DNA of 64,000 nucleotides from Trebouxia sp. TZW2008 (Eukaryota > Chlorophyta > Trebouxiophyceae > Trebouxiales > Trebouxiaceae). Location of the stretch: contig BDIU01000136.1 of NCBI GenBank assembly GCA_002118135.1, positions 124,001-188,000 on the forward strand, read 5' to 3'. Positions 6,794 through 57,640 of this stretch are shown piece by piece (position 1 is the stretch's first letter; each line of letters begins with the position of its first letter). Under the pieces are notes generated by a model that was given only the letters and a program-made list of their open reading frames with translations, made no database searches and was not told the origin of the DNA. The translations under genes were made by a program, and so were the position numbers.

Positions 6794-7928
6794 TCATTTC
6801 TGCTGCCAATGATCAAGTACAGGTCCTTTGCTACCGTAAACAGGGTCTGCTGATGGTACTGCAACTTTCCTGATGTTTGCTTCCGCTTTCTCCTTTTCTT
6901 GCTGGCTTTTGCCATAGTTCATGTCCCAGTTGTAGCCTGCTGGATATGCACCCACCATCTCAAACCCGCCCTTGGACTGTACACTGCAAGCACCAAGACG
7001 CAATCAGTGACGGCATGCACAAGAGCCCAGACATAGCAGGACTGCACCCAAGACACTGCCGATACAGCTTTTGTGCCAATGGCCAACAGACTGAACCCAA
7101 CAGAATGCCATGACAGCTCGCATATCATAGCGACAGCAGGACTGAACCCAAACAAATGCCATCATAGCTTGCATGCCAAGGGACAAACCCAAACCCAGGA
7201 CACTGGCATTATTGCTTGCATGCCAAGGGGCAACAAGATTGAGCGGAACCCAAAATGCTGCCATTACAGCTTGTATACCGACAACTTGCAGCAAAATGAC
7301 AGTCTGCTGCCACTAGGTCTGGTGTGCACACAGTAAATTTTGGGCAAAACGTAGAGCAACAGTCACACTCACCTTTCATGAGCAACGCCAGCAGGGATGA
7401 CCATCACATCTCCTGCACTCACATCCTCTTCTACACCTTTTGATCCTCCAAGCCTGCATAGCACTCACAGTCGCCAGGCTGGACTCCAAGGCGTGCACCC
7501 TGCCCAACACATCTTGGCAGATGTAGATACGAAGAGCGTAATCTGTTGGCTTGCAGCGCTGTGATTGCAGCTGGACCACACTCGTGATCAGGCAGGTTGT
7601 GGATTGACATGGAAGATGTCAACATTCCAGCTGCGAAGGTGACTGCATGAAGGAAGGGCATTTACCTTACTCGTGCAGAGCCCTTGAAGACGCCTAGAAT
7701 TTCGTGCGAAGTGGAATGGTAGTGAGGGTATTCATACAGACCAAATCTCCACTGTGGTGGGAATCCGTTTTTCTCAAATGTCTGTTCTATTTTGCTGGCA
7801 AGCTCTGATGCACTGCCATTTGCTGAAAAGGCAGCCTTGTAAATTAGTACTGGTAAGTTTTGAATGCTGCAATTGGGGAATTGCCCATCATCATGAACGA
7901 TGTGTGCAGCTGCCTGGCAGGCGGCCAT
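6794..7928 (-). CDS. YjlB-type cupin protein, tandem copy 2
   Basis: Exons 7928-7666, 7453-7373 and 6983-6794 join in frame for about 177 residues. The protein parallels copy 1 throughout: DGQFPNCSIQNLPVLIYKA, HYHSTSHEILGVFKGSA, SAGDVMVIPAGVAHE, GGFEMVGAYPAGYNWDM and TDPVYGSKGP. Intron positions and phases are identical; exon 2 is one codon shorter. It is therefore a whole-gene tandem duplicate under continued protein constraint, since metal ligands and tail are kept while introns have diverged completely. Intron 2 holds a degenerate short tandem repeat (7030-7285). The start is the first ATG of the open frame, with an acceptor-like TATGCAG just upstream. The gene is divergent from the JmjC gene, itself a cupin-fold enzyme. 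Function of the family is unknown. Confidence 0.88.
7030..7285. repeat. degenerate tandem repeat in cupin copy 2 intron
   Basis: Four or so imperfect units of roughly 50-65 bp share AGGACTGAACCCAA, AATGCCAT(C/T)A and AGCTTGCATGCCAAGGG. They lie wholly inside intron 2 of cupin copy 2, and copy 1 has no counterpart in its corresponding intron. Confidence 0.6.
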
Positions 7929-8455
7929 TGCGCAAAACGACCTTGTAGACCTGCATATGTATATTGTACAATCACATGCATCACAGCATGATGCTCTGAC
8001 ACTGCTCTCATGCATACTAGTGGAAGTCACCACCTGCAATTCAGCCGTCTGCCTGCAATGTGGGCTGCCCCCTGACGCGGTCTACGCCCAAATTGACACA
8101 ATTTGCAGTGCACTTCTGGAAAGGAGCTTGCTGATGCCAAGAGAGCCCTTGAGGTCATATCATGTAAGCTTATTGCATGCGCATGCAGACTTGGTGCAAC
8201 AAAGGTAAGAAGTTTCGTCGCTATGCTAGCGTACAGAGTGTCGCCTCAAGCAGAATAGGCTGTGACTTGTAATCGCGTACGGGTCGCGGCTGGGTCTGTG
8301 CGCGCTTGTCGAGCCTGTATGTTGAACTGGTTCATGGTTGACCGGTCAACCAAAAGACTTCCGGCTCATTGTCAGACTTGCGCAGCGTGTTAGCAGGGCA
8401 TCAGCTCTAATGTGCTTTGTATGATCTGTGTGTGACCGCCAGTTCAGTCTCAACG
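7929..8455. promoter_or_regulatory. divergent intergenic region, cupin copy 2 / JmjC gene; possible 5' exon
   Basis: This 530-bp segment separates oppositely transcribed genes and should contain both promoters. On the plus strand 8041-8168 looks exon-like (open frame through DAVYAQIDTICSALLERS), ending at a consensus donor CATGTAAGC. It may be an upstream exon of the JmjC gene, joined to an acceptor such as TTCAG at 8446, but the phase does not fix one solution. Confidence 0.4.
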
Positions 8456-9898: not shown

Positions 9899-12800
9899 TC
9901 AATCAGAAAGAGCTCCAAAGCCTGCGCCGGGTGCGACAAAGTAGTGCTTCGCCACCTGCGTCAAGAGAAAGAAATGCATTGGCACCACAACACTGCAATC
10001 AGAAGAGACATACTGATCTGGTGCCTGTCTCATGGTCTGCACTCTGTACAAACTGGAAGATCGTGCTTGCCATGAAATTGTGGGGGAACAAGCATCAAAG
10101 TCCCAGCCAGACATGCCATACTCACTTTGACTACACATAAACAAGCATGAAGACATGCCATACTCACATTGGCACATACACTTGCGTGAAGTTTTTGCGC
10201 ATGAACTGACCTGCATTGGCAGTGGTGTTCGGGATCCAAAAATGGAAGGCACAGCTGCCTCTGGTGCCTTGCTGACGCTTTGGACTTGCAGAATGTTCTG
10301 CCCTGCCATCAACTCCACTAAAGCCCTTGCCTGCTGAGGTGTCAGTGCCTGCAGCTGGCTGATCAGCAGCTCCGCTGGAATGCCTGCAGCATCGATTCAA
10401 CTCTCATTACGGCCTTGATGTGACCGCATCTGCAATTTGTGCAAGCAGATTAGGCAATGGCTTCGGCACACAAAACAGATCAGGGGCTCCTTTCTCAACT
10501 TTGCAGACTGGGTCTGGAAAGCAGATGGCAAACACAACAGAGAGAGGAGCTGCTGTGCGGGCGCCCAGGCTGGGACATTGTTGTCTTACCTGGATTGCGC
10601 ATGACCACTGAAAGGGCCCGCTGCGTCAGGGCAGTCCAGAAGGGCTGGTTCAGCTGGCCCCTATCATCAAGCCAGGGATGCAGCAAACAGGCACCTTCCT
10701 CAGTGACTACTGCATTTCCTGAGGTTGACCCCACAGCAGACATTGGATTAGCTGAGCCTTTCCGGGCAGTGACTTGAACACGACAGATGTCTTCAGCGTC
10801 TACTGCCTGTCCTGAGCTTGATGCCAAAGCAGGTAGAGGAACAGTGGAGCCGTTCTGGTCAATATCTTGGATACGGCTGGTTCTGAGAGGATTTGCAGAG
10901 CCGCTCTGATCAGTGTGCTGGACATGACTGGCTTTCAGAGGATTTGTAGAGCCGTTCTGGGCACTATCCTGGACATGGCTATGTCTGGCTGAGCCTTTGC
11001 CAGAGGTTTGAGCTTGCAACCCGGCCAGTGACTGGAAGTCTTGAGCAGGTGTATTGTCCTCTACGACAGAGCCCTTGTAGCCAGCTGTGAGTCTGTCAGT
11101 CAGTGCTGTTGCAATGAGGACATTCTGGTCAAAGGCTGGTGCCCAAATGGTCTGCTTCTGCGCAAGCAGTTGGGTTAGAGCCAGAGATGCCAGCTTGTCA
11201 TGAGTGCCACGCTCAGGTGAGTGTTGCAGCTTGTCTGTGAGCTGAGTCTGAGTGAGCCCTGATGCCCCAGCCTCTATGACATGCCTGCATGACGAGGAAC
11301 TGTGTGGGCATGCAGTATTGACTGAGCATTGAGAACATATACTCAGCCAATGCTGTAAGAATAGCAAGCCGATTTTGAGTATGCAGCAGTTCCTTGTGTC
11401 ACAGTGAAGCCAATCTGAGTATGAAGCTGGCTGATTCAGACCATGCAGCAGTCTTCCACGACACAATCTTGTACGCAATCCCATGCAGCAAAGCCTGAAG
11501 CTTATTGAACTTTGTAAGCACTTGTTGGCTAATGTGAGGTATAGACACAGACAGAATGAGGCGCCTCGGCAATGCATACAGGACAAAACAGCTGCAAGGT
11601 ACCTATTCAAGTCTGAAAGCGTACAATGGTTGATGTGAGGTGCAGACAGACAGGGGGCCCACTCAAAGGCCGGTCTCAAAACAGTAAGGCTGCAGCGCAT
11701 CTTCTTTGCCTCAACTTGTGTCAGCATGGGTTGGCTGACGTGGGTTGCAGACAGAATGCGCAGGATGTTCACAGGAAGCTGCAAATGTCAGCAAGGCTGC
11801 CAGGCATCACCTTTGCATCTTAGCCATGATAGCCTCAACATCAGGTCTGGCCTGTTTGGCATCAACGCTGTTTTCATCAGCAGCAGCACCATTGGCTTCA
11901 GCAGGTCCAGGCAGGGCTTCAGCTTGCGCTGTAGGCCGCCCTTTCCGCTTGCCTTTGCGACTCTTAATTTGCTGCTGCTGCCCCTGCTGCTGTGACCCCT
12001 GCTGCTGTGGCTGCTGTTGCGCATGCTTCTGGCTAGCCCCGTTGTTGATAGGTGCATCCACTTCTGGACCAGGCTCACTGGGCTTCTGTTGCACATGCTT
12101 CTGGCTAGCCCCATTGCAGGCAGCTGCGCTCGCATCCAATTCAGTTTCTTGGGGGTTTTGAAGGTCTAAGTGACCTTCTGGCTTATCACTGCCAAGCTGC
12201 ATGTCCGATGTGGGGTCCAGTGACGGATTGGGGTCATAAGTGTGTTCAACGGGATTCGCAGGAGGGCAAATGGTGATGGGTATGTCCACCTGTACTGGTC
12301 CTGTAGCCCCACTGAGAGCAGTTGAGGATGAGGGGTCCAGAGGGGGCAGCATGGATACCTCCACCTGCAGCAAACATACGCCATTTTGGCTAGCACCTTA
12401 AGGCTAACTTGATCAGGTCAGTTTTATGCACGTTGCCAGTCACTCAACACAGCATTGCAGCAATCACAAGTTGATCTTGCCTTTGCAGGCTTGTCAGATG
12501 TTATGTTCAAAGGCAATACAGGGCTGCAAGTGTTGAGCTTCAGCAAAAATAAGCAGGGCAGTCTGCATGCAAGCCATCTTGGCCAAACATGCGCAAATCC
12601 ATGGCCTCAGCGTCATTGGCTTTGAGAAATGAGCCTGCCAGTGATGATGAGATGCTTCGCTGACTCAAGCGACAGTGACACTGTTTGTGCTGATGTGTAA
12701 CAGACTGTTGCTGATACCTTGACCTGGCCTGGTCTGAGTTGCAGCTTGCCAGCTGCCATTAGGGTCAGCACCTCACACACCATGCCTCCTGTCACTTGCT

Positions 12801-15800
12801 CATCACCGGCTATTGCCACTGTGGCCACATCAGCCTGAGCCTGTAGTCGTCAGACACAGCAAATATGTTCCTCACGTACCTGATGACATGCATGTTTGTG
12901 GGCCAGAAGAATGATTGCTTTCCATGCAGCAATACATTATCTTGTATAGTGACACTTAGAACAGAGACGCAGCTCAGCAAGAACAGTAGATGCTAGATCA
13001 GACGTAAGCCAGAAGATCTGCCACATGCCGAGAGTATTGCAGGCATGTTTTGCGAGTGCAATCCTGCTTCACGCCACAGCAAAATCAGGGGAAATGCATA
13101 TCATGAAGCTCAATGTTCTGACATTGTGCCCTCACCAGCTGACCACTGCCTTGTCTATCTGTAGGAGTTGGATGCAGCAGTCCCGCGAGCCGCTGCCTAG
13201 CCTCCACGGCCTCTGTCAGTACAGTCTGAGGCATGTCCAGCGCCTGCAGAACAGCAAGCATGGTACCACTACCAAGGCGGGCACCCAGATAAGGTAAGCA
13301 TAGTATTGCTGTCAATGCATGCATCTGGGCAACGACAGATATGGTATCATTGCCGATGCATGCATATGATGACTGACTGCGCTGATGCCAAGCAAAGCAT
13401 ACTCCAGCTGAGCGCGCAGTTGTCTGGGTGTACACAAGAGAGGACTCGGGTGCTTGAAGAAGGGGTTTGAGCGATATTTGGGAGCCTTGTGTCAAATGCG
13501 TTGCTGCATAAGCTATGTCATAGACTGCCTGAATTTCATGAACAAACAGTCATTGCCACAGTGTGGCACATGTGATCAGCCTTGTTGGCTGGCTAAAGCA
13601 TGTAAAATTACTCTCTCTCTCTCTCTCTTCTCTGCACACAGTGGGACAAGCTTTCAAAGCATTGCTTGTTATGCTGTCTACGTATAACACGTACCGGCTC
13701 AACTGTTGCTGCAGGATGGACCGTGTGCGTGCAGGTCATGTGGTTGCAGAGGCAAATTCTAGGGTGCAGAAGCAGGTGCAGGTTTAGAAGGTGCAGAGGC
13801 AAAGAGTCACATGCCTGTGTACAGTAAAGTCTTGTTGTAACGACTGCTCTGGTTACCAAGAAATTTATCCTTACATCAAGTTGTCCTTGCTCAGAATGCA
13901 GTGATTGGTCACCAGTAGCAATGTCCTTTCATCGAGATTGTCCTTACATTGAGTGTCCTTACAACAAGAGTTACTGTACATGCAGATCATAAAACTGCAG
14001 AGGCAGTCAGCAGGAAGTGCAGAAGAGAAGAGTCACCTCCACAAGCACACATGGATCATGTGGGTGCATAGGCAGCCTCCACAAGGTGCAAAAATCATCA
14101 GAAAGCTGTGTTTTAATTGCTCAAATGAGATGTACCAATGCTAGTATTAATGATAGTCTGGAATCAAACAGTAAACAAGACAGATGCAACAAGTCAGCTC
14201 CATGTGTAAATGCAGATCATATTGCAGTCAAGATCAGGTTGCAGGGGCAAGATCAGGCAAAAAGTTACCTCCATGTGCTCAGCAAAGAGCCTGGACAGCA
14301 TGAGGGGCCTCTTCACCCCTGACGCGTTCACCAAACCCTGCTGCTGCAGGAAGGCCAGGGCCGCTGTGATCTCTTGACTGGTGAAACGCCTTGACACAGC
14401 TGCCACCACATCATGCTCAGCAAGACCTGCAAAGGCAGCAAGCATTTTAGAGGACCTGATGCTGTTCAGGAACAGCGTGTGCTTAGCGCTTGTAGCGTAG
14501 CATCGATAGAGTAGGACCTGTATATCAGGCGTTACATACCAAGACAATGTAAATCACTCAGCCCAGCAAGCACAGCAAGTGTCTGTGAAAAGACCTGTGG
14601 CACTTTGCCGAGAAGGGTGTGATGCTGTGTCCATAGCTCAGGCCAAAGGATTTTTGATGCCGATGTACCGTGGAATGTGAAAGGCAGGGGTAGGCGATGG
14701 GCTGCTTGCTGTTTAGGAGCACCAAAAGGCTGCTTCCCAGATGTGTCAGCCAGGTACAGCATAAACTTGATGGGCTCTGCAGCATGTGCCTCCACCACAG
14801 TATGCTACAGGTCATTGCAAGCCAACATGACGGAGATTGTTCATTGTAGACAGACACCGTCAATGCTGCTCACCAGATGTGTCAGCCAGGTACAGCATAG
14901 TTAATGAGCTCCACAGCATGTGCCTCCACCACAGCGGGCTTGAGGGTCCATGATACGTGTCATGGCTGTGTCATTCAACACAAGTGAAGGAAAGCTGTGT
15001 TTCCCACTTACCAAATGCGTCAGCCAGGTACAGCATGGACTTGATGAGCTCCATGGCATGTGCCTCCACCACAGTGGGCTTAAGAGCCCCAGGCATCTGC
15101 AAGGGGCCCCTGGCTGGCAGGGGCACAGTCTTCCTCCACATCCTGCTGATGCCCCGCCCTGCATTTCATTTGAACAATCAATTAACCATTTGATAGAATT
15201 TACAGTCCAGGGCAGAAACCCAAATGTGACTCATCAGACTTTCTGGCTTGAAAGCACAGGTGTATGTGTCTGGCAACCACCGGCGATCAACTATTGACTC
15301 AATCATCCAGTCACGCACTTACTCTCTCCCTCACTGAGTCAAGCAACCTGTGGATGGTATTGACAGCAGATACAAAGTTATATACAGTCTAAATCAGGGA
15401 GTTAAAGGTGACTCGTCGAATATGCTGGCGTGAAAGCACAGGTGAGTGATAATGATCTGAGGCTAGGCAGGCTGAAAGGGGCAATTGGAAGACTGCAGAC
15501 GCAATCAATGACGGTTTCAGCCCCCTGGTGACGCTTGCAGTGTTGACAATAACCTGCCTGAATGTGCCTGGCATTGCAAGCAAAGTATAGAGGTCAAAAT
15601 CTATGGGAAACACAACCTCTGATTCACTTGCAAACAATGACATGCCATGATGACTAATTTCATGCAAACATCCCACAGAAGCAAGAGCTTAGAACATATC
15701 TCACCCTTGACAAGGCTTGCAGCAATGTCTCCTTGCGCCGCATCAAGCTGGTCGGCATCCGCAGACCTATGCCGCTTCCGTCTGTGAGTGGGGTATATGT

Positions 15801-18800
15801 CATCCTGCACCAACCCACATTGTCAGCATAGCCATCTCATCAAGCCTCGCTCCAATCGACCCAAAAGTGTTACGCCACTGTAACAACACACCCCAACATG
15901 CAAAGCACCAAGCAATGTGATGGATCTTGATGGCTTACTCTGCCTATGGCTTGAGCCAGTCAGACTTTGCCTGGGCTCAAGATACTGCATCTGAATAGCA
16001 CGATATCGTACCTTTCATTGCATGATCATACAGTAACTTCTCTTTGTAAGGGCACTCAATGTAAGGACACTCTTGATGTAAGAACAATGCAGTTTGGGCC
16101 GGCCGTGTATCGCAACTTCGATGCTAATTTCCAGTAAGGACAATCCAATGTAAGGACACTTTTTATGGTACCCAAAGCAGTCTTGATGAAGAGGAGTCCT
16201 TTTATCAACAGTAAGTCCACTCACCATCGACACTACCAGGCAGGCGTCATAAAGCTCCTGACCGATATTGAGAGGGTCTTGAACGTCAGGGCAAAATATA
16301 GGCGTCACATGATGTTTGTGATGTCAGCTGTTGTATCCATCCATTGTTCATGGCCAGATGAGATCAGCTAAGTGTGTGATGTGAATCCTGGCGTGCGCTG
16401 ATTGAAGGAATTGTCTTAAGTACCTGATACCTCTAGACAAAATCACGTTTGAAAGAGGTCTCGAGACAATGATAAACGATAAAGCACTGTGGTGTGACAT
16501 TTGATCTTACAGTACCTCAAGGCCTTCCAGCTGTGACGGCTTCCGCCGGCTTTCTGTCCGGCGAGGAGTGACATCCAGGATCAGCTGAATCATGCCCTCG
16601 ATCTCCTCCAGAGCCCGTTCATCCTCCTCATCCTCCACATCAAAGAGGGGCTCATATGGGTCCAGCAGGGCCCTGCTGGGGCTCAGGGGAGATCCCACTG
16701 GGGTGCCAGCTTTAGCGATGCCCTGTGCTGAAGCATTTGGTGACCTTGGGGCTTCAGCACTGCTGTTGCCTACTTGTGGCTGAGCTGTTGAGCCTTCTTG
16801 TGGCTGTGCTGAAGTGGGTTGATTTTGGAGCAGCTGTGGTGCAGGAGCATCGTCATTGGGGCTGACTGATCTGCTGGAGGCAGCTGTCATGAAGGTGTCC
16901 ATCACACTGGCAAGCCGGTCTGAGGAGAGATACTCTGTCCGCTTGTATTTGCGCTTGCCTGCATGTCGGCAAAACAGCAAACCTCTCAGCATGTGCGCTT
17001 GAAGTCATGACAGCACAAAGGTGCCAAGACTGACCATTGGGTCCTACTGGATCGTGTCAGGTTTGGCAGGATGCGTGACACATGTGTAATGAGGTCAAGG
17101 GAAGTCAGCCTAAATAGGTGAGCTTTCAAGATTCATGACAGCACAAAGCTGCCAAGACTGACCATTGGGCCCACCTGGATTGTGTCAGACTTGGCAGAAT
17201 GTGTGATACGTGTGCAGTGAGGTCAAGGGAAGTCTGCCTAAACATATTGGGCCGCCCCATTAACGTAGGCAGCTGCGGCCGCAACAGCTGCAGCCGCACA
17301 CAACAGGGTTTGCGAGGTCTTCGCTTCGTTCACAATGCACATCGCAGCCACAGGTAACTGACTCCAGCTGGTGGGGCAACCATTCAGGTGAGCTTTCAAG
17401 ATCTCACCTGCAGGGTCAATTGGCAGTGCTGCCTTGCTGGCGTTGGCTGCCTCAGCGGCTGCAGGTACAGCTGCAGGTACAGCTGCTGGTGTTTGAGGCC
17501 TGGTGGCAGGCCTGCTAGCCAATGCTACTGTGCTTTGCCCTGTTCCTGTTGATGCGACTGCCTGCTTGGCTTGCCTACAATGCAGCGCCCAAATCAGGCT
17601 TTCAGAAAGTGCACAAAGTGCTGCATTCTAGTCTCATTGCAGGGACAATTTTGACCGAGAAATAGAATGAACAGAACATACCTATTTGACGGACGCAAGC
17701 TGTGTGTAAAGGTGCTCATAAGCCTTGGGAGGCACATGACCTCAAACCTTGTGCTGCTTGAGGTCTTGATGCAATAGCAAATGGCCTTTAGGACTTGTGC
17801 ACATCTGTGGCAGTGTGCACATCTGTGACAATATGAACTATGCTTGGCAGACACAGTGTGTGACGCAACTCCAGGCAACGACAATTGACTGTATAAAGGA
17901 CAGGCTCCGATACTTTCACGACACTTGACTGCATAGAGGACACTCCAAGACCCATCTCTAGAGGCTCAGGATGCAGCGTACCAGGCAGCAAGCTTTCTGG
18001 CGTGGTGCCTGTGGTAGACATCAACACAGAGCTCCTTCAGTGTCTCCATGTGGGCTTGAGTCTCGCTGTATCGGGCCAGGGCCTTGTAGCAGCGCCGCTT
18101 GGCTGACTCCAGGGACACTGGCAGCTTGAAGCGGCGGAAGTTTACATAGTACTCAGGGCTTCTATGAGTGCGCCACCTGTACACAGTGCGACATTGGACA
18201 CAGTTTGAAGCGGCTGAGCTGGTTTGTCAGGGACACTGGCAGCTTGAAGCGGCGGCAGTTGACATAGTACTCAGGGCTTCTATGAGTGCGCCACCTGTAC
18301 ACAGTGCGACATTGGACACAGTTTGAAGCGGCTAAGCTGGTTTGTCAGGGAGACTGGCAGCTTGAAGCGGCGGAAGTGAACATAATACTCAGGGCTGCTG
18401 TGGGTGCGCCACCTGCCCACAAGCAACTAACTGTCAGGCGCAGTACGATACTGTCCAGGGTATTCAGCTCAGACAGTTGTGGGGATGGGAAGTGTTGGAG
18501 TCAAGTCATACTGTCTTATCAAAGTTGGTACACTGGAAAGCAGAATGTGATCCGCCGGCAGCAGCTGTATCTCTGCCAAGGTAACTTCGCCAGGAGTCAG
18601 AAGCTGGCATGAGGCCAGCTGTGAGCAGGAAGTTAGAGTCTGACACATGCAATTGACAGCCAAGAGGTCAAAGCATACTGCTTGAGAGCTGAAGGTCCTC
18701 GAATCTACAGACAGAGCTTGCAAGCACCTATCAACGAAACAAGCAAGTTGCAGATAAGCTGTGCGGCAAATAGCATGTAATGCACACGTCCAAATCAAAT

Positions 18801-21800
18801 CATGCGACCAGGCTATCTGTATTGGGCATAGGCTGCCAGACCTCTCTTCTATACAATTTGGAGATAGTGCTGGACAACACACTTAAGAGCAAAGTCTGCT
18901 TGGCCAAACGTTCAGCGTGAGTCACAGCAAGCAGCACTGCTGTTGACGCACCAATCTCATGAGCAGCAGCTGCGCATGCAGTTGGCATTCAGGTCCGCTC
19001 TGACACTAAGCTTGACACAAGAGGGGCCGACCTGGCGAATGACCTCAGTATAACTGTATCGTCCTCCACCGTGTACCTGTAGGCTGGTCCCTTTTTGGGC
19101 CGCTTCTGACCAGCAGCTTCACTGTCCTCAGCATCGCTGTCAGCCCTCCTTTTCACCCTACACAGGTGCCAAAATCATTGCACAAGAAATGGCTGGCAAC
19201 ATTGACTTTTAGCTCTTTGTGAGCATCATATCTGAGCAAGTTGCTCCAAGCTATCTGGCTGGGCCTGCTGAGCCTGTCTAGCACACGTTCAGAATGAAAG
19301 AATGAATGAAAGGAATGAACAACCATTGCCAAGGCAAGTACACCACAGATTATTAAAACCCTAACCCCACGCACAGTCTGAGCTAAGCGTATGAAGGAAA
19401 GGTCGTGCCGGACATCAAGTGCTCCATCATTTGTCACAGTCACGTAGCGAGTACAATTGCCAAGTTGCCAAGATGAGCACGGTCTTGCCAGAGAGAACAC
19501 ATGGATGAAAGCAAACGGCAGGTATGAAGGCAAGCTGGACCAGGCAAACCTATCTGCACTGATCATTATAGCAAGCTTCGCAGTGTGAACAACTTTGCAG
19601 TACATTCAAGTCTCTTGGTAAGGACACTCGATGTAAGGACATCCTTCATGTAAGGTCGATGCAAGTGGGAATGAGTGGCTGCAAAGAAAAGTCACTGTAC
19701 TGTCTGTGAAGACAGCAGTCTTAATGAGACAGAGACCGATTTGGGTGGCCACCTGGGGACAAAGCCTGGGCTAGATTTGCAACCTTCACAACATGAAACA
19801 GCAGCATACATCAATTAAGTCCTGTTATGGTAAGGATGAGAATTGAATCCTACTTTGAGGGCCGCCTGGGAACAAAGCCTGGGCCCAGCTCGCCATCATC
19901 AACCCTTGAAGCCTTTTCAGCCTTTCGTTTCTCATTCCTGACTCTGTAGGAACGGTCATCATCAGGGATCTCGCTAGCATGTCTGCGCTTCCTTCTGGGG
20001 GACAGGCCCTGCTTCTTGCGCAGCTGGCGCTCCCTGACCCTGCGGTTTTTCTCAATTTGCTCCTCTACCATCTGTGACAGAATGTGTCCTGACACACCTG
20101 CATATCCATGCTGGCCTGTCAGATCACGCACATCTGCACTGCTGTGTCATGCATTATTGTGTCACATGTTTGTGTCATTGCACCATCAGCAGCAGCGCCT
20201 GCATAGGCACATCAGGTTGTCAGTACACAACAGTGTGGACCTGCACACTGTTGTGTGAGTGTCAGGATAGCGATGAAGTATAGGCAATGATGCAGGTGAA
20301 CGATATGTGCCCTATTACTGAAACTTAAGCGTGGCCAGGCATGCGCAGAGGCTGGAGCTGCCACAGCAGCAGTCCAATGAGAGCAGATCCACACTGCTAC
20401 ACACCCTTTGAAACCTGCCATGCAGACATTTGCTTTGCTGTTGCCTGCATGTCGTGATGAGCGTGTCCGAGGTATAGTGAGCAATGGCATAACAGCTGTG
20501 TGTGGCATGGCTCCTGTGAAAGTTTGTGTGGGAGCTCTGAAAGTAATGCTCAGTAACACATTGATTTGACAGCTGTGAATGGTCATATGAGGGCACAGTA
20601 TCAATCAATCAATCAATCAACAGAATTCACAGTCCAGGGTAGCCAGATGTGACTCATCGGACTTCCTGGCTTCAAAGCACAGGTGAATGATCTGCAGTTG
20701 AAAAAGCAAGACCAAGCTCACCTTGAGCTGTCAAGCGCTGTGCGATGCTGACTCTACTCTTGGCTTCATGCTCTGCGACCACCTCAGGTGGTAGTATATT
20801 GAACGCCCGTGGTCTCAGCAAAGCCTTGCTGGTAACCTTGAAAACTGGATCTAGCCTGCCCAGCCTGGCCTTGCGTATGTTGGAGAGCGTGTTCACCTGC
20901 AGAGACAGCCTCTTGTTGACATGCCTGCGATCATTCAGGGACCTATGTATGTTTGAGAATCTGTTCACCTCACCGAAATAGCCTTAGGTGGAAATGTCGA
21001 GAGACATGCAATCTCCTGCCTGTGCGCTTGTCTGGCTCATGAAAGGCACTAGCAAATATGTAAATGATGGGTCAAGTTGTGGATGGTACCACTGCCTCCT
21101 TCTGAAGTGTTCTGAAGTGTTCCTACCAAAGCTGCTGTCTGCTACCTAGAATGTAAGTGCGTATCCCCTGGCAGCAACAGTGGGAGGTCAGAAGCTGACT
21201 GTTCAGAGCCAAAAACAGCACTGGAATGCAATGCAGACAAAGGATAAGAATGCAAGCACATGCCTTGAGGTGGTGACAAGGACCCTCGACCCTGTCCTGT
21301 CCAGTAGGCTGCATGTGCCATTTTGTGCAGACATGCAAACCATGGACAGCTTGCTGATTGGCCCTGGAACTGGCAGAAAGGAACAGACGCGGCCATACTC
21401 AATTGCAATCAAAACCAAACAGCTGCAAGTAGGAAGGTGGTTGCCATGCTGCTGGGCAGCGCTGCTGACCTACCTGCTCATACTCCGAGTTGAGCTCTTT
21501 GCAATGTGCATGCACTACAGCCAGCTGACATAGCCGTGCTGGTCAGCTGCCTGGGCAAAGGCTTACGGGCATGGGACTGCTCCAGGGTCCTTCCATGAAA
21601 TTTGTTCTAGGGGTAGGAGATGTTGTTTCTATGCTAGGCTGATGTATGCAACATAGAAAATATACCTGCTCATACTCCAGGTTGAGCTCTTTGGCGATGT
21701 GCATGCACTGCAGCCAGCTGACATAGCCATGCTGGTCAGCTGCCTGGGCAAAGGCTTGCTTGAGGGCATGAGACTGCTCCAGGGTCATCACGTGGAGCGT

Positions 21801-24800
21801 GTTCCAAGCTCTTCTGTTGAGAATGTCTGACACGGTGGTGGAAGGGAACCAGGAGGGGGCTTTCCAGGCCCTGCTTGCTGCCCCTTGGTTGGGCTTACTG
21901 CAGTAAACATCAGCAGACATTAATATATTGTTGACTGACAGTGACCGCCATGTTCTGCGTGAAGGTCTTTTGATCTGTGCCAAACAGGTCCCTGTGGTGA
22001 GCTCCGTACGACTGCTTCAGGGTCTTGATGTGGAGCGGGTTCCAAGTCCTTCTGTTGATAATGTCTGACATGGTGGTGGCAGGGAACCAGGAGGGGGCTT
22101 TCCAGGCCCTGCTTGCGGCGCCTTGGTTGGGCTTGCTGCAGCAAACAGCAGCAAAATTCAACACACATGCAATTGACACTGCCCGCTGAGATCTGCACAA
22201 ATGTCTCTAGGCCCCTGCTGACCGCGTGTCCATTTGTTGGAATTTGTGATAGTGCTTCAGTGTTCCAAGCCCATCTGGGGAGAATGTTTGACACGGTGAT
22301 GGCAGGGAACCAGGGGACAGGGGGAGGGGTTCCAGGCTCCAGTTGCTGCTCCTTGGTTTGGGGCTTGCTGCAGCAAACAGCAGCAGAAATCGACAGATTC
22401 CTGACAGCGTGTGTTCTGTGCAAAAGACTTTGTGGGATGTCTGACACAGTGGTGAAGGGGGACCAGGAAGGGGTTTTCAATGCCCTGCTTGCTGCCTTTT
22501 GGTCAGGCTTGCTGCAGTCAAACAGCAACAGATGTTAGATGGTACTGAGTGGGAATTCTGACTGCATTCTGAGTGATTCTGGGCTAGCTGCATTCACACG
22601 GGATGTACCTGTGTTGAATTGGGAGGGTTGTAAATGCCCTGCTGCAAGAGCAGTGATTGGCCTTGCTGCATCAAACAGCAGAAAGGAGAGTGCAACATGT
22701 TTTAGGGGATTTTCCTGCTAGCAAGGGCTGTGCTCAACACACGCAAAACGCACTTGCAGCAGCAGATGCAAACAGCAAGCAGTCCTCCGGTTGTAGTGGC
22801 TGCCAGCATTGCTCAAGAGCAGGAAGACTTGCTGCAGCTCGTATGTTTGTTTTCTCAAGAAGGAGCCTGCCACTTGCACTTTTGTAGGCAGCATGACAAC
22901 GGACATGCAGACATGCGTCGTTTACATCACTCTGCGCATGGCAATTGTGCTGCCAGTGTATGCTCAGCAGCATGAGACACAAAACAGGATCTGTCCACAA
23001 AAACCTGTAGTCCACAGACATTTGGGCCAGCTGCGCCCAATAGCCCTCCAGTCCCTCGTGTGTGCTCAGATCAAAGGAGCGCTGCACATACTCATCGCTG
23101 CCATTGTTGCCTGTAGCCTCAGGACTACCTTCACTCTTTTTCACCTCCACAATGCCTTTGGTCAGCGCCACATACCTGCAACAGTGGTACAGAATCTGAC
23201 CGAGTGCTGCATGCAGGCGTGCTCTCTTGCATTCACTGACATCACTGTACTGTCCAGGCTTATGGAATCCTGCAAGGGGAGTTGCATGGTGTGAGTTGTG
23301 GCTCAGGCGTCTGCGTTGTTGTTGCCCCATCTGTGAACAGATCGGTCACAGCTCACTTATTGCCACAGTGAGCTGCCATGTTAGTGGTGTGCTGGGTATC
23401 AGGGCCAGATGCTGATGTATGAACTGTAGATTTGGCTAATGTGCCAGCATCATGACACATTGGTGTTGCAGAAGGAGACTGTGACACTGTCAGCAATCAG
23501 CGGCAGCATGAAGAAGGAGAGCAGCACTGCTTTAAGACTTGACTTTTTGTGTACATTGGCCACAACACATGGGCCTGCTTTGTCCGGGACAAAGTCAAAG
23601 GTGATTTTGACATCAGGTCTGACCTTGAGGCCACTGTTGGTGCCAGAGGCTCTGGCCTGTCACCATCATTGTGTGGTGTCACAACACTCTCAACCAGACC
23701 CAGGCACCTCAGGATCTCAATGTGTTGCTTGGTACGGCGGTCTGCATTGTTGTCCATCAAGTCAAGCAGCTGCGCCTCTGAAAGTTCCCCTGCGCATTCA
23801 GCAGCCATTTGCAGAACCTGTATATTTGTTGTGATCAGCACAGCGTGTCTTGCCTTTTGCCTGCTGCTGCCCAATGCGTTAGTGGTGACAATGTCAAAGC
23901 AGTATGCAGCATCCACTGTATAAATACGCACACAATGCATGCACGCATGTGGTACAAACACAACACGCCCACAGCTAGCAAAGCTCAACATGACAGCTGA
24001 TTAAAAGCCGTGAGAGTGCACACGCACATAGATCTGTGCCCGAGAACAGCACTCACGCATTCTTTTGCCAGAGCTGGTGAGCTCCGCCAGGTTGGGGATG
24101 TTGTTGGTGGTGCCAATTACCTGCAGGTAAAGGTCCACAGGCATCCACTCCAACAGCTGCTGTGCATATGCATACAGCTCTACAGTATCAGACAACCACT
24201 GTGCTGTAGAGCAGCACTCACGCATTCTTTTGCCAGAGCTGGTGAGCTCAGCTAACTTGGGGATGGTGTTGGTGGTGCCAAAAGTCTGCAGGTATATGTC
24301 CACAGGCATCCACTCCCACAGCTGTTGTGCAGTGAAGCTGTTGGGGGAGGACCAGCTGTCTGCCCCGCTGGTCAGCTGGGCTGTGGTCTTGATGCGGTCA
24401 CTGTCTGGCATGGCAGCTCTGAACATGAAGACATGCTCCTTTGGCCGAGCCTGCTGCAGCTGCTGGTCTGCTTCTGCCAGGCGCTCATAGCCTCCTAGGC
24501 CTGAATGTGAAAGTGGAAACGGTTCCTGACTGCTGCTGCGGCCTTGATATTTGCAAGTCAACCCAAGAGTTGCCATTGTATCTAATACAGATTGGTGGAG
24601 ATTTTGCAAGCAGAGGTTGCACACAGACAGGCGTTATGGGCAAACAGCTGTGCTCACAATTCTGATGCCTCGTGTGAAGCGAGCGTCGTTTGGCATGTCC
24701 AAAACCTTGTCTGTGATTGGTGCTATGCCTCCTGGTGCATGTTTAGAGGCAGGCAGATAGGTTTATACGCAAGCTGGATAGACTGAGACAACATCAGAAT

Positions 24801-27800
24801 ATACACTCTCAAATATAGACTGTGATGTGCAGCTTTGCGCTTGTTGCATTGCAAAGACTCGAGAGCTGACCAATAAAGCGGCAGATCCAGTAGTACAGCA
24901 GCCTGATCCTGATCATCATAGGCCTCATGCAGCCTGCTAACAGATTCCTGCCCACATCACACCTTTTGCAGTGCAAGCATCATGAGACTCACCAATCAAG
25001 CGGCAGATCCAGTAATGCAGCAGCCTGATCCTGATCATCTTAGGCCTGATGTAACCATTGTCATACAGCCGGTTCACAAATTCCTGCCCAGCTTTGAGCA
25101 TGTTGCTGGGTGCTTTGCCCGGCCTGACAGGCTTTGGGGGAGGCTTAGCGTCCTGGGTCTGCTCCTGTTTGGCTGGCTTCTGCCTGATGCCCTGGTAGAA
25201 TTGCTGCACCCCTTCCTTGCGGTGAGCGCTGCTGATCGCCCTCCATTTTGCCACTAACTGCAAAAGAGGAAACGCAGTGGAGCAAGACACCCCAGGGCCA
25301 GCTGTGATGCAAAGACACAGCAGCATGGCTGGAGTATGCAAAGGCTGTGGGCATGGGGAGGCATCTGCCTTGCATTGATCACAAATGCTGCTGCTTTGCC
25401 CTTGACACACGCAAGGGCGGACACAAGTCACCAGCAGCGTGGCTGATCTATGTGTGCGCTATGGCTATGGTGAGGCATGTGCCTTGCAGTCATCACATCT
25501 GCGGCTCTGCCCTATATGTCTGGATGGGAACGCAGATTACCAGCAGCAGCACCTCTCATGTTGCTGCAAAATGGAACAAAACACCCAGGCATGCAATCTG
25601 AATGTTGAAAGCAGCTGTGTGTCACTGTTCAAGCGCGCGGCTGGGATGCTGTGCATGCCTTGCTCTGAAAGGCAGTTGATGCAGTGGCAATGTATCATAT
25701 TCTTGCTGTGCTCAGCAATTGGCTACTAGGTTCAATGCGCAGAAGCACGCTGCAGGTCTTTTAGTACCTGCTCAATAAGGGCGTCATTGACTTGCACACC
25801 AGGCTTGACATACGCCAGCATGTCTTTGGTCACAACAGTTGAGGATGCCAGAGTGACTGGTATGACCAGCTTCTGTGCTTTGCCGTGCCGGCACAGCGCT
25901 TCAAGGTATCGCTCAATGGTCTTTGAATCTGGCCCGTTGCCTGGGATCTCAGATGGGTCAGTATCCTGCAGCAGCGACCGTTGAATGTACATTTGGTCAT
26001 TTGGGTTTGATAAATCTCCAGCGAGAGCATGAGCAGCATTTGGCAAAACTTCAAGGCATTGTCAGTGTCAGCCAGCAAGTCTGCAGAACTGTCAAGACTA
26101 TGGCAGCACAAGACAATGATAGATGACTGGGATCTCAGATGGATCAGTATCCTGTGGCAAAAGCCAGCCATTGAAAGTATGATCAGTCATTTGGGTTTGA
26201 TGATATGCCAGCGACTTTGCGAGCAGCATATGGCAAAACTTGCAGGCATTGGCAGCGCCAGCAAGCAAGTCTGCAGAGCTGTCAAGGCTATGGCAGCACA
26301 AGACAATGATAGACGACTGCAACTGATGAGCCATGGCATGCTGAGCTCCCACTAATGCATAAAGACCCATGCTTGTAAAAGCAAAACCCCACAGGCAGCA
26401 GATCAAGCCTGTATGAAGGATCACAAGAACACTGCATATTGAGCATCATTTATTGACAGACACAAAGGTGCTCCCTTCTGCAGTTGCCACAGCAAGAAGA
26501 AGTCACAGTTGGTCAACATGAATCAAATATCAGCCATGACATGGTGATGCTGTGGCAATAGCAGGAGGGAGCACCTTGATGTCTACCAATCAATAGTGCT
26601 CAATATGCAATGTGCATTTGGTGTTTGGTTGTTCCAAAACAGCAGCAAAAGCTACAAAATACAGCGGCCACTAAGATGCTTGTTGCAGCCTTGTCTGGCT
26701 TTTCCAGGAGCAATCAAGCCAGAAGCAGTTGGAATGCCTTGACAATCAACAACAGTATGCACCATGGCTGAGATTTGCCTGAGGTATGATTGGGCCCGTA
26801 GGGTGGTGCAAAAGCATGCAAGGTATGATTGTCCCCATCAATGACAAGCACACCTTCAGATAGCGCCTAAGGGCGGACTTGAACAGGAAGCCAGCGTCTT
26901 CTAAATGTTCCAGCAGCCGCCTGATCCTGTCATAGGCAATCCTGCTCTGATCATTGATCCAGGGCTGCATGGTCAGCAGCTCAGCCTCAACCTTGCCCCT
27001 TATCTCTGCTTGTGCCTGCTCTGACTGGTTCCTCTCCCTGTCAGCCTCTGCTTGATCTCCCTCAACTACAGCACTGCCCGCTTCTGGGATCAGTGGCATG
27101 GCATCAACAGCGTCCTTGCTATGTGTGGCAGCAAGGCTTGGCTCATCCTTCTGCTCGGTCTGCTGTTGCCCTTGTGACTGATCCGCATACTGATCCTGCT
27201 GCTGCTGCTGCTGCTGGGACTGTTGGTTGCCTGCTACCTGACCAGCAGGCAGAATATCAGCTGGCGTGGCTGTGATCAACGGCACTTCAGAGTGCTCAGC
27301 ATCTGCAGTGAGCTCTGGGTCCATTGCGTCACACACAGCACTAAGCCAGCCCTGTGCTAGCCAAGGCCCTGTGGGCGCGTTTGACTGCCTATACTCTGCC
27401 AGCAACTCTGGTGGAGCACGTAAGCAGACCACCACTGACTTGCCCTTCTGCTCTTTGCACGCATACAGGCCTAAGCGAGAGGTGAAGTCCTGAAGGAAGT
27501 TGGGTTTGTGGAAGGTCCTGATGGGGAATTGCAGGTGCTTGCCTAGCTCTGACATGACAATGCCCTCCTCCCCTGGCACCATGCAGTGTCAGTCAGATTG
27601 TTGTTGAGTAGTAGTCAAGACCTTGATCGCCAAGATAGTGAAACTCAATGGTCAAGATGCTGCCCATCAGTGCAATAGTAAAGTAGCAAACAACACCAGT
27701 TAACAGTAACACAAAGGAAGCATTTGACAAGACTTCTGGGGAATAGACCTGTTGACAGCTGGGCTTTTGTACTTTAAGCATGAGCAGAAGCATGTCATGC

Positions 27801-30166
27801 TGATATGGCAAACTGACGCATGAGAGAGCTAAGCTCGCAGTAGCTTTGAGCACAGTCATCGAGATGCTGTAAGGAAGACAACCTGCGTTCATGACAATGT
27901 GGAAGAACTCCCTGGCGAAGGAATGCTCCGCCCCTAGGTCCCAAGAGCTGCTGGGGTCATTGTCATTCTCTTCACTTGCATTGGGTTTGGCTGCTTTGAT
28001 AGTTGTCCTATCAGACCCCTGAACCTGTAACCAAGCAAATCATTTGTGTCCAGAAGCACACTTCCCCGCTGATGTTTTGCCATGCAGTGATTGTCAAACT
28101 CAGAAGATAGCATGCTGCTGATACAAGCATCACAGCAAACCCTTTGTTTCAATGCATGCTCGCAACCGATCAAAAGCTATCAACAGAGTGATGGCTTCAA
28201 GGGTTTCACCCCACGTATCAAGAAGGAGTCACCTTTTGAAAGAACACAAACTGCCGTCGACTGTCTGGCACAGCGATGGTGGCTCAGCCATCAACAACAG
28301 GCTAGGTGGACATAGCTCAAGCACATCAGCACTTCAGTAAACATTGCTGCAATGCAAAGCTCACCACATGCACATCTAGTTCCAGGACGCCCTGCTTCTG
28401 CATTCTTGTCTGTAGTCGCCTCCAGAGGCGATGGTTCTGTTTCAAGCTGCCACTGTGCATGCGACTCAACACAAACCTCTTGAACTCGCTCCGCACAATG
28501 CCAACACCGTCAGGATCCATTTCTCTCATGCGTTTCAGCAGGTATGCAATAGTAGCATCGTCATCAGTCACAGCATACAGCTGATCATCAGAGACTTCTT
28601 TCTGCATTGCACACACACATATGTCTTGCAGTGGTACAAATTTGAGGTGCATTGCGCTGCATCTTTCAGGCAATGCACTTTTTGTGCATTACAGCTTACA
28701 TGCATTACCACCGACATCCCAACATCTCCATCTACATGCATGCAACCAAGAGCCTTTGGGCAACGAACCATATTGCAGGCCTTGATATGGCTGCATACCA
28801 AATCTGGCGAATGCACTTCAAGCGTGAATCATGCTGGTGACATGCTGAAAAGGGGCATACATGGACAGTGCAGAGCTGATGGCATCGCAGCCTTTTTCTC
28901 CGAGCAGAACAATGCAGCGAAGCACGTGACATATGAGGAAGTCCACAGCTATGGTCGCCTTTAGCTGACAAATGATTTAATCACCATTTGACAGATTCTG
29001 GCTGCACTACAAAGCACAAGAAGCACGCGAGCCAGATTGCAGGCATCCCATACTTACTGCAAACTGCAAGCCAGGGGCAAGCTTTGGGGCAAAGCGGGGC
29101 AGGTGCAGAATGTTGGTCTTTCCCATGGTCCCTTTGCTGTTCCTGACCTGAATGTCGCTTCTGATCACCAGATTGTGAATCTCCAAAGTCTGTAGGGCCC
29201 AGTTGCATTGTCAGGGTCTGCTTCAGGAAAGTCCGTGATGAAGAGCTGTATACATACAGGTCAGTCACAGCTTGTGCCTGTGCCTACCTTGACCACAATA
29301 AAGAAGTTCTTGTGTGGCACATTGCAGATGCGAGCGACATCTGGCTGGACAGCACCTTTATCTCTTGACTTTCCAGTGAGCTCTAGCGTCTTGCGCTGCA
29401 GGCAAAATGATACAAAATTGGCACAAAGCTAATGCAGATACTGCAGTCCCACTGGCATGGCAGCAACATACCATATCTGCGTTCAGAGGATGCACTGGAT
29501 CCCTTTCATATAGTCCCAAAGCCATATCTCTGGCTTCAGTGGTTGCCTGTCAGGAGCCACATAAAAATAAAAATCTGCTCAGATTTTTCTAGCTTTGACA
29601 TGACATAAACTGTGCAAGCAAGAGATGGGAAATGTACCAGCAAGGTGATGCCATCTTCCTCAGCGCTGTCTGTTGCAGAAGCCTGTGCATGCAACTTGGT
29701 CATCCTCTGACGGTGCATTGCATAATGTAGCAGCTAGCACTGAATGTTGAGCAGTGAGAGTACCTTGGATGCATCAGCACCATCTGCTTGACAGCCAGAT
29801 CTGCATGTTCAAAGCAAATCATTGAATGAGCAGAATATGCATGAATGGCTCCTGATAGCGTTTCTGAAATGTTTGCACACCTCTCTGCTGTGTGGGCAGC
29901 TGCATATTTGACCGAAATGTCTGGTCTCGCTTGCAACTCAGCCAAGACCAGCTTTCTCAGTGGATTAGTCAGCTCTTTCACTTCCTTCGGCAAACCATTG
30001 CTTAGCAACGTCCAAAGTCGAGTTGCGGTGCAGCCTGCGAAAGCGGCCACATAAGTGCTCGCTCATGTGATCGCATCACATACGCCGAAAATTAAAGTAA
30101 TATACCTTCCGGTCCCTCCAGCGCAATCTCATCTACCGCTTGTAGTACGAGCGTGTCCATGGTCAT
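9899..30166 (-). CDS. B-block-binding subunit of TFIIIC (GTF3C1/tau138-like), about 20-kb multi-exon gene
   Basis: A chain of minus-strand exons matches the plant TFIIIC B-block subunit from end to end. Exon 1 (30166-30106) reads MTMDTLVLQAVDEIALEGPE and splices in frame to CTATRLWTLLS. Then follow RICNVPHKNFFIVVK (29.3 kb), TNILHLPRFAPK (29.1), a low-complexity Q-rich segment (27.2), DNGYIRPKMIRIRLLHYW (25.1), EWMPVDIYLQTFGTT (24.3), LEGYWAQLAQMSVDYRFLW (23.0), WFPSTTVSDILNRRAWNTL (21.85), an SANT-like YTVEDDTVILRQVI (19.05), AHAMELIKSMLYLADA (15.0), a Q/P-rich linker (12.0), LHPWLDDRGQLNQPFW (10.65) and a terminal exon VAKHYFVAPGAGFGALSD (9956-9899). TFIIIC binds the internal B box of tRNA genes and recruits TFIIIB for RNA polymerase III. 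Exact borders of all internal exons are not fixed. The gene is full of local exon and intron duplications. Confidence 0.85.
13820..13978. mobile_element. MITE-like inverted-repeat element, copy A
   Basis: The segment starts TACAGTAAAGTC and ends GAGTTACTGTA, flanked by TA. Inside are the family hallmarks GTAACGACTGCT, GGTTACCAAGAAA and repeated GTCCTTACAT. It lies in an intron of the TFIIIC gene. See the findings entry on the dispersed family. Confidence 0.65.
14736..15081 (-). repeat. triplicated TFIIIC exon (PTVVEAHA exon)
   Basis: Three copies of a 65-70 bp exon-like unit lie at 15081-15010, 14942-14873 and about 14800-14736. The first is intact: PTVVEAHAMELIKSMLYLAD, then AFG before donor GTAAGT. 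The middle copy lacks 2 nt (ATTAACTATG for ATCAAGTCCATG) and is frameshifted. The last keeps the frame but has GGGAAGC in place of the donor and runs on into GKQPFGAPKQQ. This segment corresponds to the VELFK region of plant TFIIIC subunits. Confidence 0.8.
15197..15445. repeat. dispersed repeat 'TGTGACTCATC...AAAGCACAGGTG', two local copies
   Basis: 15197-15262 and 15384-15445 share ACAGTC(C/T)A, (A/G)GTGACTC(A/G)TC and CTGGC(T/G)TGAAAGCACAGGTG with a third copy at 20627-20685. All three are in TFIIIC introns. Confidence 0.55.
16029..16199. mobile_element. MITE-like inverted-repeat element, copy B (diverged)
   Basis: Begins TACAGTAACTTCTCTTTGTA and continues with repeated TGTAAGGACACT blocks; the right end is degraded near AAGAGGAGTCC. 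It lies in a TFIIIC intron. Confidence 0.55.
17008..17245. repeat. tandem duplication in a TFIIIC intron, about 125-bp unit
   Basis: Two copies of CATGACAGCACAAAG, then CCAAGACTGACCATTGGG, then GAGGTCAAGGGAAGTC. The phrase GGTGAGCTTTCAAGAT at the join recurs near 17386. Confidence 0.7.
18111..18425 (-). repeat. tandem triplication of a TFIIIC exon and flank, about 118-bp unit
   Basis: Nearly three units of about 118 bp. Each minus-strand copy encodes WRTHRSPEYYVNFRRFKLPV or a close variant, preceded by a TGTACAG or similar acceptor. Only the copy at 18185-18111 continues into the downstream coding sequence (SLESAKRRCYKALARY); the other two run into intron-like sequence. Confidence 0.8.
19601..19699. 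mobile_element. MITE-like inverted-repeat element, copy C (shortened)
   Basis: TACATTCAAGTCTCTTGGTA at the left, GTAAGGACA repeats inside and AAAGTCACTGTA at the right. Shorter than the other copies. It lies in a TFIIIC intron. Confidence 0.5.
20627..20685. repeat. dispersed repeat, third copy
   Basis: Shares ACAGTCCAGGG, ATGTGACTCATC and AAAGCACAGGTG with the copies at 15197 and 15384. Preceded by a short (AATC)n run at 20603-20620. Confidence 0.5.
21478..22690 (-). repeat. array of duplicated TFIIIC exon units, progressively decayed
   Basis: The intact exon at about 21900-21664 encodes SKPNQGAASRAWKAPSWFP through HGYVSWLQCMHIAKELNLEYE. Its 5' half recurs at 22140-22010 (WFPATTMSDIINRRTWNPLH), 22375-22255 (WFPAITVSNILPRWAWNTE), 22515-22430 (WSPFTTVSDI, then lost) and probably 22685-22620 (barely recognisable). 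Its 3' half recurs at 21590-21478. Units nearest the intact exon are best preserved. Confidence 0.85.
24040..24345 (-). repeat. duplicated TFIIIC exon (WMPVD exon)
   Basis: Two adjacent copies encode AQQLWEWMPVDIYLQTFGTT and AQQLLEWMPVDLYLQVIGTT, both followed by LAELTSSGKRMRE. Both frames are open, so two near-identical exons could be spliced in turn or as alternatives. Unlike most duplications in this gene, neither copy shows obvious damage. Confidence 0.8.
24868..25095 (-). repeat. duplicated TFIIIC exon segment (RIRLLHYW region)
   Basis: About 90 bp at 24991-25090 (YIRPKMIRIRLLHYWICRLI) is repeated at 24868-24955, where the same DNA is recognisable (GGCAGATCCAGTA, CAGCCTGATCCTGATCATC) but the upstream part of the frame is interrupted. 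Confidence 0.7.
25320..25560. repeat. tandem duplication, about 115-bp unit, TFIIIC intron
   Basis: CAGC(A/G)TGGCTG, then GAGGCAT(C/G)TGCCTTGCA and the following sequence repeat at about 25320 and 25434. Non-coding. Confidence 0.6.
25945..26320. repeat. tandem duplication, about 185-bp unit, across a TFIIIC exon border
   Basis: The unit beginning GGGATCTCAGATGG, with TCAGTATCCTG, TTTGGCAAAACTT(G)CA and TATGGCAGCACAAGACAATG, occurs twice. The left copy includes the 5' part of the exon encoding DPSEIPGNGPDSKTIERYLE; the right copy retains only traces of that frame. Confidence 0.75.

Positions 30167-47141: not shown

Positions 47142-57640
<10,499 letters not shown>

What the first reader, a model, noticed from the sequence alone, without database searches (positions are those of the whole stretch)
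14736..26320. Serial exon-plus-splice-site duplications throughout the TFIIIC gene, with graded decay
Within one gene at least eight independent local duplications (14.7-15.1, 17.0-17.2, 18.1-18.4, 21.5-22.7, 24.0-24.3, 24.9-25.1, 25.3-25.6, 25.9-26.3 kb) copy 65-240 bp units, usually an exon with one or both splice sites. Typically one copy keeps frame and splice signals while the others carry frameshifts or lost donors. This looks like an ongoing process that makes exon-sized tandem duplications and discards most of them. I infer a genome-wide tendency, since the T-F-x-P and SMC5 genes show it too.
Basis: partly seen in the sequence, partly recalled or inferred. Interest (0 to 1): 0.8.

Follow-up and report, generated by a model that had tools for sequence, protein, structure and literature searches.

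The report
Half-exon duplications throughout an algal genome
In a sample of this lichen alga's genome (Trebouxia), genes often carry extra, decaying copies of nearby DNA pieces about 100 to 200 letters long that tend to straddle one edge of an exon, pointing to a frequent local copying error whose products splicing can probably hide.

Summary
All eight arrays exist in a minus-strand TFIIIC gene (about 30160 to 10127) of a Trebouxia genome; orthologue proteins from three other Trebouxia carry each exon once. The extra copies are not whole exons: in six arrays they are partial exons with one exon edge, in two they are intronic. Copies upstream of the complete exon carry its 5' part, downstream ones its 3' part.

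The genome-wide inference holds in a 230-kb sample: 73 local direct arrays in 20 of 23 stretches, about 15% of the sequence, with 2 local inverted pairs; none in shuffles or 50 kb of E. coli. Spacing peaks at 100-199 bp (57 of 106 pairs). No unit tested recurs elsewhere, so this is no transposon family. Units straddle an exon edge twice as often as random placement gives (46 vs 23.1 of 81); a simple decay simulation does not reproduce this.

Best reading: frequent local duplication by break repair, tolerated because half-exons lack one splice site. TFIIIC is ordinary for this genome. 'Ongoing' is not shown: pairs at 95% identity or more are rare (1 of 81). RNA data, sister-genome DNA and a eukaryotic yardstick were not available.

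The parts
10127..30160 (-). TFIIIC B-block-binding subunit gene that holds the arrays
   Evidence: tblastn with Trebouxia orthologues P0121-P0123, exon by exon
14726..15089 (-). Array A: complete exon 15159-15010 and two downstream copies of its 3' part (one with a 2-nt deletion, one with the donor GT lost)
16993..17242 (-). Array B: intronic head-to-tail duplication, spacing 125-128, gap 3 bp
   Evidence: between exons matched at 17990 and 16959; one place in the genome
18110..18421 (-). Array C: two upstream copies of acceptor plus 5' part, then the complete exon 18190-17990; spacing 118
   Evidence: one place in the genome
21471..22693 (-). Array D: three or four upstream copies of the 5' part, the complete exon, and a downstream copy of the 3' part with a stop
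   Evidence: one place in the genome
24034..24331 (-). Array E: downstream copy of the exon's 3' part and donor, 32 bp from the original
   Evidence: one place in the genome
24844..25090 (-). Array F: downstream copy of the 3' part and donor region of exon 25257-24993
25312..25547 (-). Array G: weak intronic duplication, spacing 113, 69%
25938..26319 (-). Array H: intron end, acceptor and about 28 exonic nt duplicated head to tail with a 6-bp overlap
   Evidence: one place in the genome

Best explanation
The arrays are traces of a frequent local duplication process in this Trebouxia genome. It leaves a second copy of a stretch, most often with 100-199 bp between copy starts, in direct orientation, either head to tail or some tens of bp away from the original (shown). 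The likeliest source is repair of staggered or paired breaks by fill-in and end joining, as described for natural insertions in rice and small tandem duplications in mouse and human cells (inferred). A unit often has one end in an exon and the other in the neighbouring intron. The new partial exon then has an acceptor without its donor, or a donor without its acceptor, is probably skipped in splicing (inferred, no RNA data) and decays, while the complete exon stays under selection (decay shown). Units lying inside an exon are about half as common as random placement gives, and 6 of 10 have a spacing divisible by three, as selection against frame damage predicts. Why exon-edge units outnumber intron-only ones by more than simple decay predicts is not settled.
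For: 73 local direct arrays in 230 kb, 20 of 23 stretches, 2 local inverted pairs, 0 in shuffles and 0 in 50 kb of E. coli. Spacing 57 of 106 pairs at 100-199 bp. Units are unique: one genomic place for each of 5 window arrays and 0 of 93 units matched elsewhere in 294 kb. Of 31 single-pair arrays in the window chunks and first 17 stretches, some are head to tail and many have a gap of 26-117 bp, the mix of tandem and nearby non-tandem copies that PMC7407515 reports for rice. Geometry: 5'-part extras lie upstream in 26 of 28, 3'-part extras downstream in 16 of 18. Over the same residues the main copy is at least as close to the orthologue as the extra copy in 11 of 11 compared stretches, 250 vs 200 of 287 residues (in array C the compared stretches run a few residues past the copied unit). 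Orthologue proteins carry the exons once. Glutamate dehydrogenase repeats the pattern. Ku, PolA-family and XPG-family matches are present.
Against: A neutral simulation with random placement, constraint on the main exon and the same detection gives an exon-edge to no-exon ratio of 0.43-0.58, observed 2.19, so random formation plus decay alone does not fit. Pairs of 95% identity or more are rare (1 of 81). No RNA evidence for skipping and no direct evidence for the repair pathway. Microhomology at junctions was seen in single cases only (for example the 6-bp overlap in array H).
Confidence: 0.58

Rival explanations
1. Duplication is targeted to exon-intron boundaries, for example because breaks or template switches are set by nucleosomes placed on exons, or by transcription and RNA processing. 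A unit length near one nucleosome would then be causal.
For: Exon-edge units 46 vs 23.1 expected, also in the six later stretches alone and in all three identity bins, robust to local shifts and stricter exons, and not reproduced by the decay simulation. Median spacing 149 bp, quartiles 116 and 179.
Against: Pairs touching no exon show a similar 100-199 bp range, and a purely intronic array lies in the same gene. The simulation is crude (exact tandem units, even ages). The nearness to nucleosome length is numerical only.
Confidence: 0.25
2. The extra copies are functional: alternative or mutually exclusive exons, or new introns made by tandem duplication.
For: Array E's extra copy keeps an open frame over 33 residues (region in 29, 72, 73). 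A potato gene gained an intron by a duplication crossing an intron-exon boundary (PMC4974935 abstract).
Against: No extra copy in TFIIIC is a whole exon; frameshift, lost donor and stop occur. No AGGT-type intron-gain signature in 236 introns. Orthologue proteins lack internal repeats (7 of 7 tested). Exon-edge spacings are not enriched in multiples of three (14 of 46).
Confidence: 0.08
3. Artefact: assembly error, or a transposon or satellite family.
For: Palindromic elements (13 in 170 kb, 2 in 60 kb) and one 112-bp array at 49.96-50.42 kb do occur.
Against: Array units unique to their place; copies commonly differ by 10-40%, which an assembler does not invent; direct and local with only 2 local inverted pairs.
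Confidence: 0.03

Closest known systems
Patch-mediated break-repair duplications in rice (Vaughn and Bennetzen 2014; seen only as summarised in passages of PMC7407515)
   Same: Direct local duplications, tandem, partly tandem, or copied from within 200 bp of a break, 10-1000 bp
   Different: Here spacing peaks at 100-199 bp, about 15% of sampled sequence lies in such arrays, and exon edges are over-represented
Small tandem duplications by CST and Pol alpha-primase fill-in (PMC8355091, passages)
   Same: Short direct duplications proposed to come from offset nicks and fill-in
   Different: Shown in mouse and human cells with designed breaks (43-bp overhangs in the passage seen); no pathway evidence here
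[quoted passage not shown] potato RdRp case PMC4974935 abstract)
   Same: Tandem duplication in genes; the potato duplication crosses an intron-exon boundary, like the 5'-part class here
   Different: No AGGT signature here and no evidence yet that new introns are spliced
Tandem exon duplication giving mutually exclusive exons (named from general knowledge)
   Same: Exon sequence copied next to itself
   Different: Whole exons with both splice sites there; half-exons with one edge here
Introners (PMC9860276, search listing only)
   Same: Genome-wide change of intron content
   Different: Introners copy themselves into many genes; these units are unique to their place

Membership tests
Short local duplications from break repair | Direct copies within about 1 kb, locally derived | tested here: met
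   73 direct arrays vs 2 local inverted pairs in 23 stretches; units unique
Short local duplications from break repair | Mixture of exact tandem and nearby non-tandem copies | tested here: met
   gaps between copies from overlap to over 100 bp in 31 single-pair arrays
Short local duplications from break repair | Dependence on end-joining or fill-in enzymes | not testable with these tools
   Ku and PolA-family matches exist in the genome, which shows presence only
Short local duplications from break repair | Microhomology or filler at junctions | tested here: inconclusive
   6-bp overlap in array H, 32-bp filler in array E; most junctions are too old to read
[quoted passage not shown]
   236 introns, no excess over shuffled partners at any threshold
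Intron gain by boundary-crossing duplication (potato type) | Duplication crosses the intron-exon boundary | tested here: met
   46 of 81 pairs cross one exon edge, predicted exons; arrays A, C-F and H with orthologue-based exons
Intron gain by boundary-crossing duplication (potato type) | A new intron is spliced | not testable with these tools
   no RNA data
Tandem whole-exon duplication | Complete exon with both splice sites copied | tested here: not met
   no such copy in the TFIIIC arrays; 4 of 81 pairs in the sample vs 3.1 expected
Introner or other transposable element | Related copies at many places | tested here: not met
   1 place each for 5 arrays in 68.5 Mb; 0 of 93 units elsewhere in 294 kb

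The most novel reading that the evidence does not exclude
This alga has a duplication process of about nucleosome length that is focused on exon-intron boundaries and keeps seeding introns with ready-made half-exons carrying an acceptor or a donor. By extrapolation from the sample (73 arrays in 230 kb of 68.5 Mb) that would be on the order of twenty thousand arrays, raw material for boundary-crossing intron gain and new exons, a scaled-up version of the single potato case.
Probability: 0.18. Interest if true: 0.82.

Novelty: new variant of a known kind. Interest (0 to 1): 0.6.

Why it matters
If it holds on whole assemblies, a lichen alga offers thousands of natural duplications of exon edges at many stages of decay. 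That makes two questions directly testable: how short tandem duplications form, and how often they become new introns or exons. It also warns annotators: predictors can splice partial copies into proteins, as my own did. In two Trebouxia genome papers the words 'tandem' and 'exon' do not occur in the main text held (PMC12712428 and PMC11523091, word searches). My nine paper searches listed no report of it, but I saw listings only and the library holds open-licence papers only.

Tried and rejected
AGGT intron gain: no signature. Exon preference judged by bases in exons: no excess (0.26 vs 0.29), which first suggested random placement; the test by exon edge reversed that. Detection bias as the full cause of the edge excess: simulated and insufficient. 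A 5' over 3' bias (28 vs 18) is too weak to claim. A sharp lower size limit near 97 bp, suggested by BLAST, is partly a matter of method: the ungapped scan found 13 pairs at 60-99 bp and 12 below 60. Loss of a repair gene: Ku, PolA and XPG families give matches; nothing further tested. Sister-genome DNA could not be reached, so comparison rests on proteins.

Rows dropped before counts: class tests used pairs with spacing 60-300 bp (81 of 106); predicted exons under 30 bp or with coding score under 5 were ignored; low-complexity pairs were filtered; the intron test used introns of 50-600 bp between retained exons. The exon model was trained on the window and the first 17 stretches; on TFIIIC it recovered 5563 of 6096 orthologue-supported bases among 7039 predicted.
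Full report
What genome and gene. The window lies at G000:C132:124001-188000 of a 68.5-Mb, 527-contig assembly. A polyprenyl synthase from it is 92% identical to proteins of Trebouxia sp. C0004 and C0005, 88% to C0010, and 100% to an unnamed protein (P0001), so it is a Trebouxia species, not identified further. The gene is a TFIIIC B-block-binding subunit on the minus strand. Proteins from Trebouxia C0004, A1-2 and C0006 (P0121-P0123) match it exon by exon from about 30160 to 10127.

The arrays. Repeats are present at all eight places named. The orthologue proteins have no internal repeat and each duplicated exon stretch of the window matches one stretch of them. Aligned in gene orientation and by tblastn: array A has the complete exon 15159-15010 and two downstream copies of its 3' part, one with a 2-nt deletion, one whose donor GT is lost. 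Array C has two upstream copies of acceptor and 5' part, then the complete exon. Array D has three or four upstream copies of the 5' part, the complete exon, and a downstream copy of the 3' part with a stop. Arrays E and F have a downstream copy of the 3' part with the donor region. In array H the intron end, the acceptor and about 28 exonic nt are copied head to tail with a 6-bp overlap. Arrays B and G are intronic. Over the same residues, the main copy matches the C0004 protein at least as well as the extra copy in 11 of 11 compared stretches from arrays A, C, D, E and F, 250 against 200 of 287 residues (one stretch is a tie, and in array C the stretches run a few residues past the copied unit).

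Genome sample. Seventeen 10-kb stretches from every tenth contig (three of the 20 requested did not exist) and six more from long contigs were scanned the same way. The first 17 gave 49 local direct arrays covering 24.9 kb of 170 kb, in 14 of 17, with 2 local inverted pairs, 13 palindromes and 0 arrays in shuffles. The six later ones gave 24 arrays covering 10.5 kb of 60 kb, in 6 of 6, with no local inverted pair and 2 palindromes. Fifty kb of E. coli gave no local direct pair; that only shows the method is quiet on ordinary DNA. No other eukaryote could be scanned, so I cannot say how unusual this rate is among algae.

Size. In an ungapped scan that treats all spacings alike, 106 pairs fell 12 below 60 bp, 13 at 60-99, 57 at 100-199, 11 at 200-299 and 13 at 300-1000; among those at 60-300 bp the median was 149 and the quartiles 116 and 179. 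In simulation detection was 0.98 or more from 80 bp upward at identity 0.8 or more (0.84 at 80 bp and identity 0.75), so the peak and the fall above 200 bp are not made by the method; spacings under 60 bp are under-counted. The nearness to nucleosome length is suggestive only.

Exon relation. With a self-trained exon model, bases in arrays are no richer in exon than under random placement (0.26 vs 0.29). Asking instead what each unit covers: of 81 pairs, 28 carry the 5' part of an exon (11.5 expected), 18 the 3' part (11.6), 10 lie inside an exon (19.7), 4 cover a whole exon (3.1) and 21 touch none (35.1). The six later stretches alone, on which the model was not trained, show 12, 9, 3, 0 and 3 of 27. 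The excess holds when units are shifted locally by 250-900 bp, though the 3' part then falls to the border (18 vs 12.3, 56 in 1000 shifts reach it), and with stricter exons. It holds in young, middle and old identity bins. In the window's own 12 pairs the same test shows no excess, with few pairs and a coarse model. 5'-part extras lie upstream in 26 of 28 and 3'-part extras downstream in 16 of 18, as head-to-tail duplication with one end in the exon requires.

A second verified gene. In L018 the glutamate dehydrogenase gene has three successive copies of one exon's 5' part at about 7311, 7433 and 7627; only the last continues as a complete exon. The Trebouxia A1-2 protein P0126 has no internal repeat. 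Family searches of the whole genome also showed such groups, for example an XPG-family exon at C57:178778, 178933 and 179105, two of the three with in-frame TGA, and single extra copies with a TGA beside a helicase exon (C352:40532) and a kinase exon (C130:70887). These are examples, not a count.

Mechanism. Shown: local, direct, unique units, mostly 100-199 bp apart, often crossing one exon edge, one copy intact. Inferred: formation by fill-in and joining of offset breaks, and tolerance by skipping of half-exons. The edge excess could come from where duplications form or from which survive. A simulation with random placement, slower change in the main exon, free change elsewhere and the same detection gave edge to no-exon ratios of 0.43-0.58 against 2.19 observed. 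It assumes exact tandem units and even ages, so I take it as a sign that simple survivorship is not enough, not as proof of targeting.

Whether it continues. Of 81 pairs, 1 has identity of 95% or more, 8 of 90% or more, 30 lie at 85-90% and 28 at 80-85%. In the window the first pair of array C is 97%. Either the process has slowed, or near-identical copies are collapsed in the assembly, or conversion and deletion remove them.

Literature. Small direct duplications from break repair are known (PMC8355091 passages; PMC7407515 passages). Intron gain by tandem duplication is known (PMC3443670 passages), and a potato case crosses an intron-exon boundary (PMC4974935 abstract). In two Trebouxia genome papers the words tandem and exon do not occur in the main text held.

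Noticed in passing
window 13800-13989, 16029-16198, 19593-19683, 47422-47624, 50397-50621, 55363-55510: A dispersed repeat in both orientations (64-79% alike, 'TGTAAGGACA'-type motifs), probably a short non-autonomous element.
   Followed up: no
window 26422-26620: A 200-bp imperfect palindrome inside a TFIIIC intron, hairpin or MITE-like; 15 palindromes also occur in the 230-kb sample.
   Followed up: no
window 5151-7956: Two stretches of 200 and 600 bp repeated 1.6-1.9 kb apart, apparently a tandem pair of related genes.
   Followed up: no
window 49960-50424: Array of 112-bp units, 3-4 copies, in a stretch where my model predicts no exon with confidence.
   Followed up: no
G000:C57:178778-179254: An XPG-family nuclease exon present in three local copies, two with in-frame TGA.
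   Followed up: no
L010:3456-4155 and 5039-5610: Two multi-copy arrays (spacing 147 and 125, 82-88% alike) in a predicted protein kinase-like gene (name by eye).
   Followed up: partly
window about 32866: Possible GC-AG intron in the polyprenyl synthase gene (CAG|GCATGT); the protein joined across it matches P0001 at 100%.
   Followed up: no
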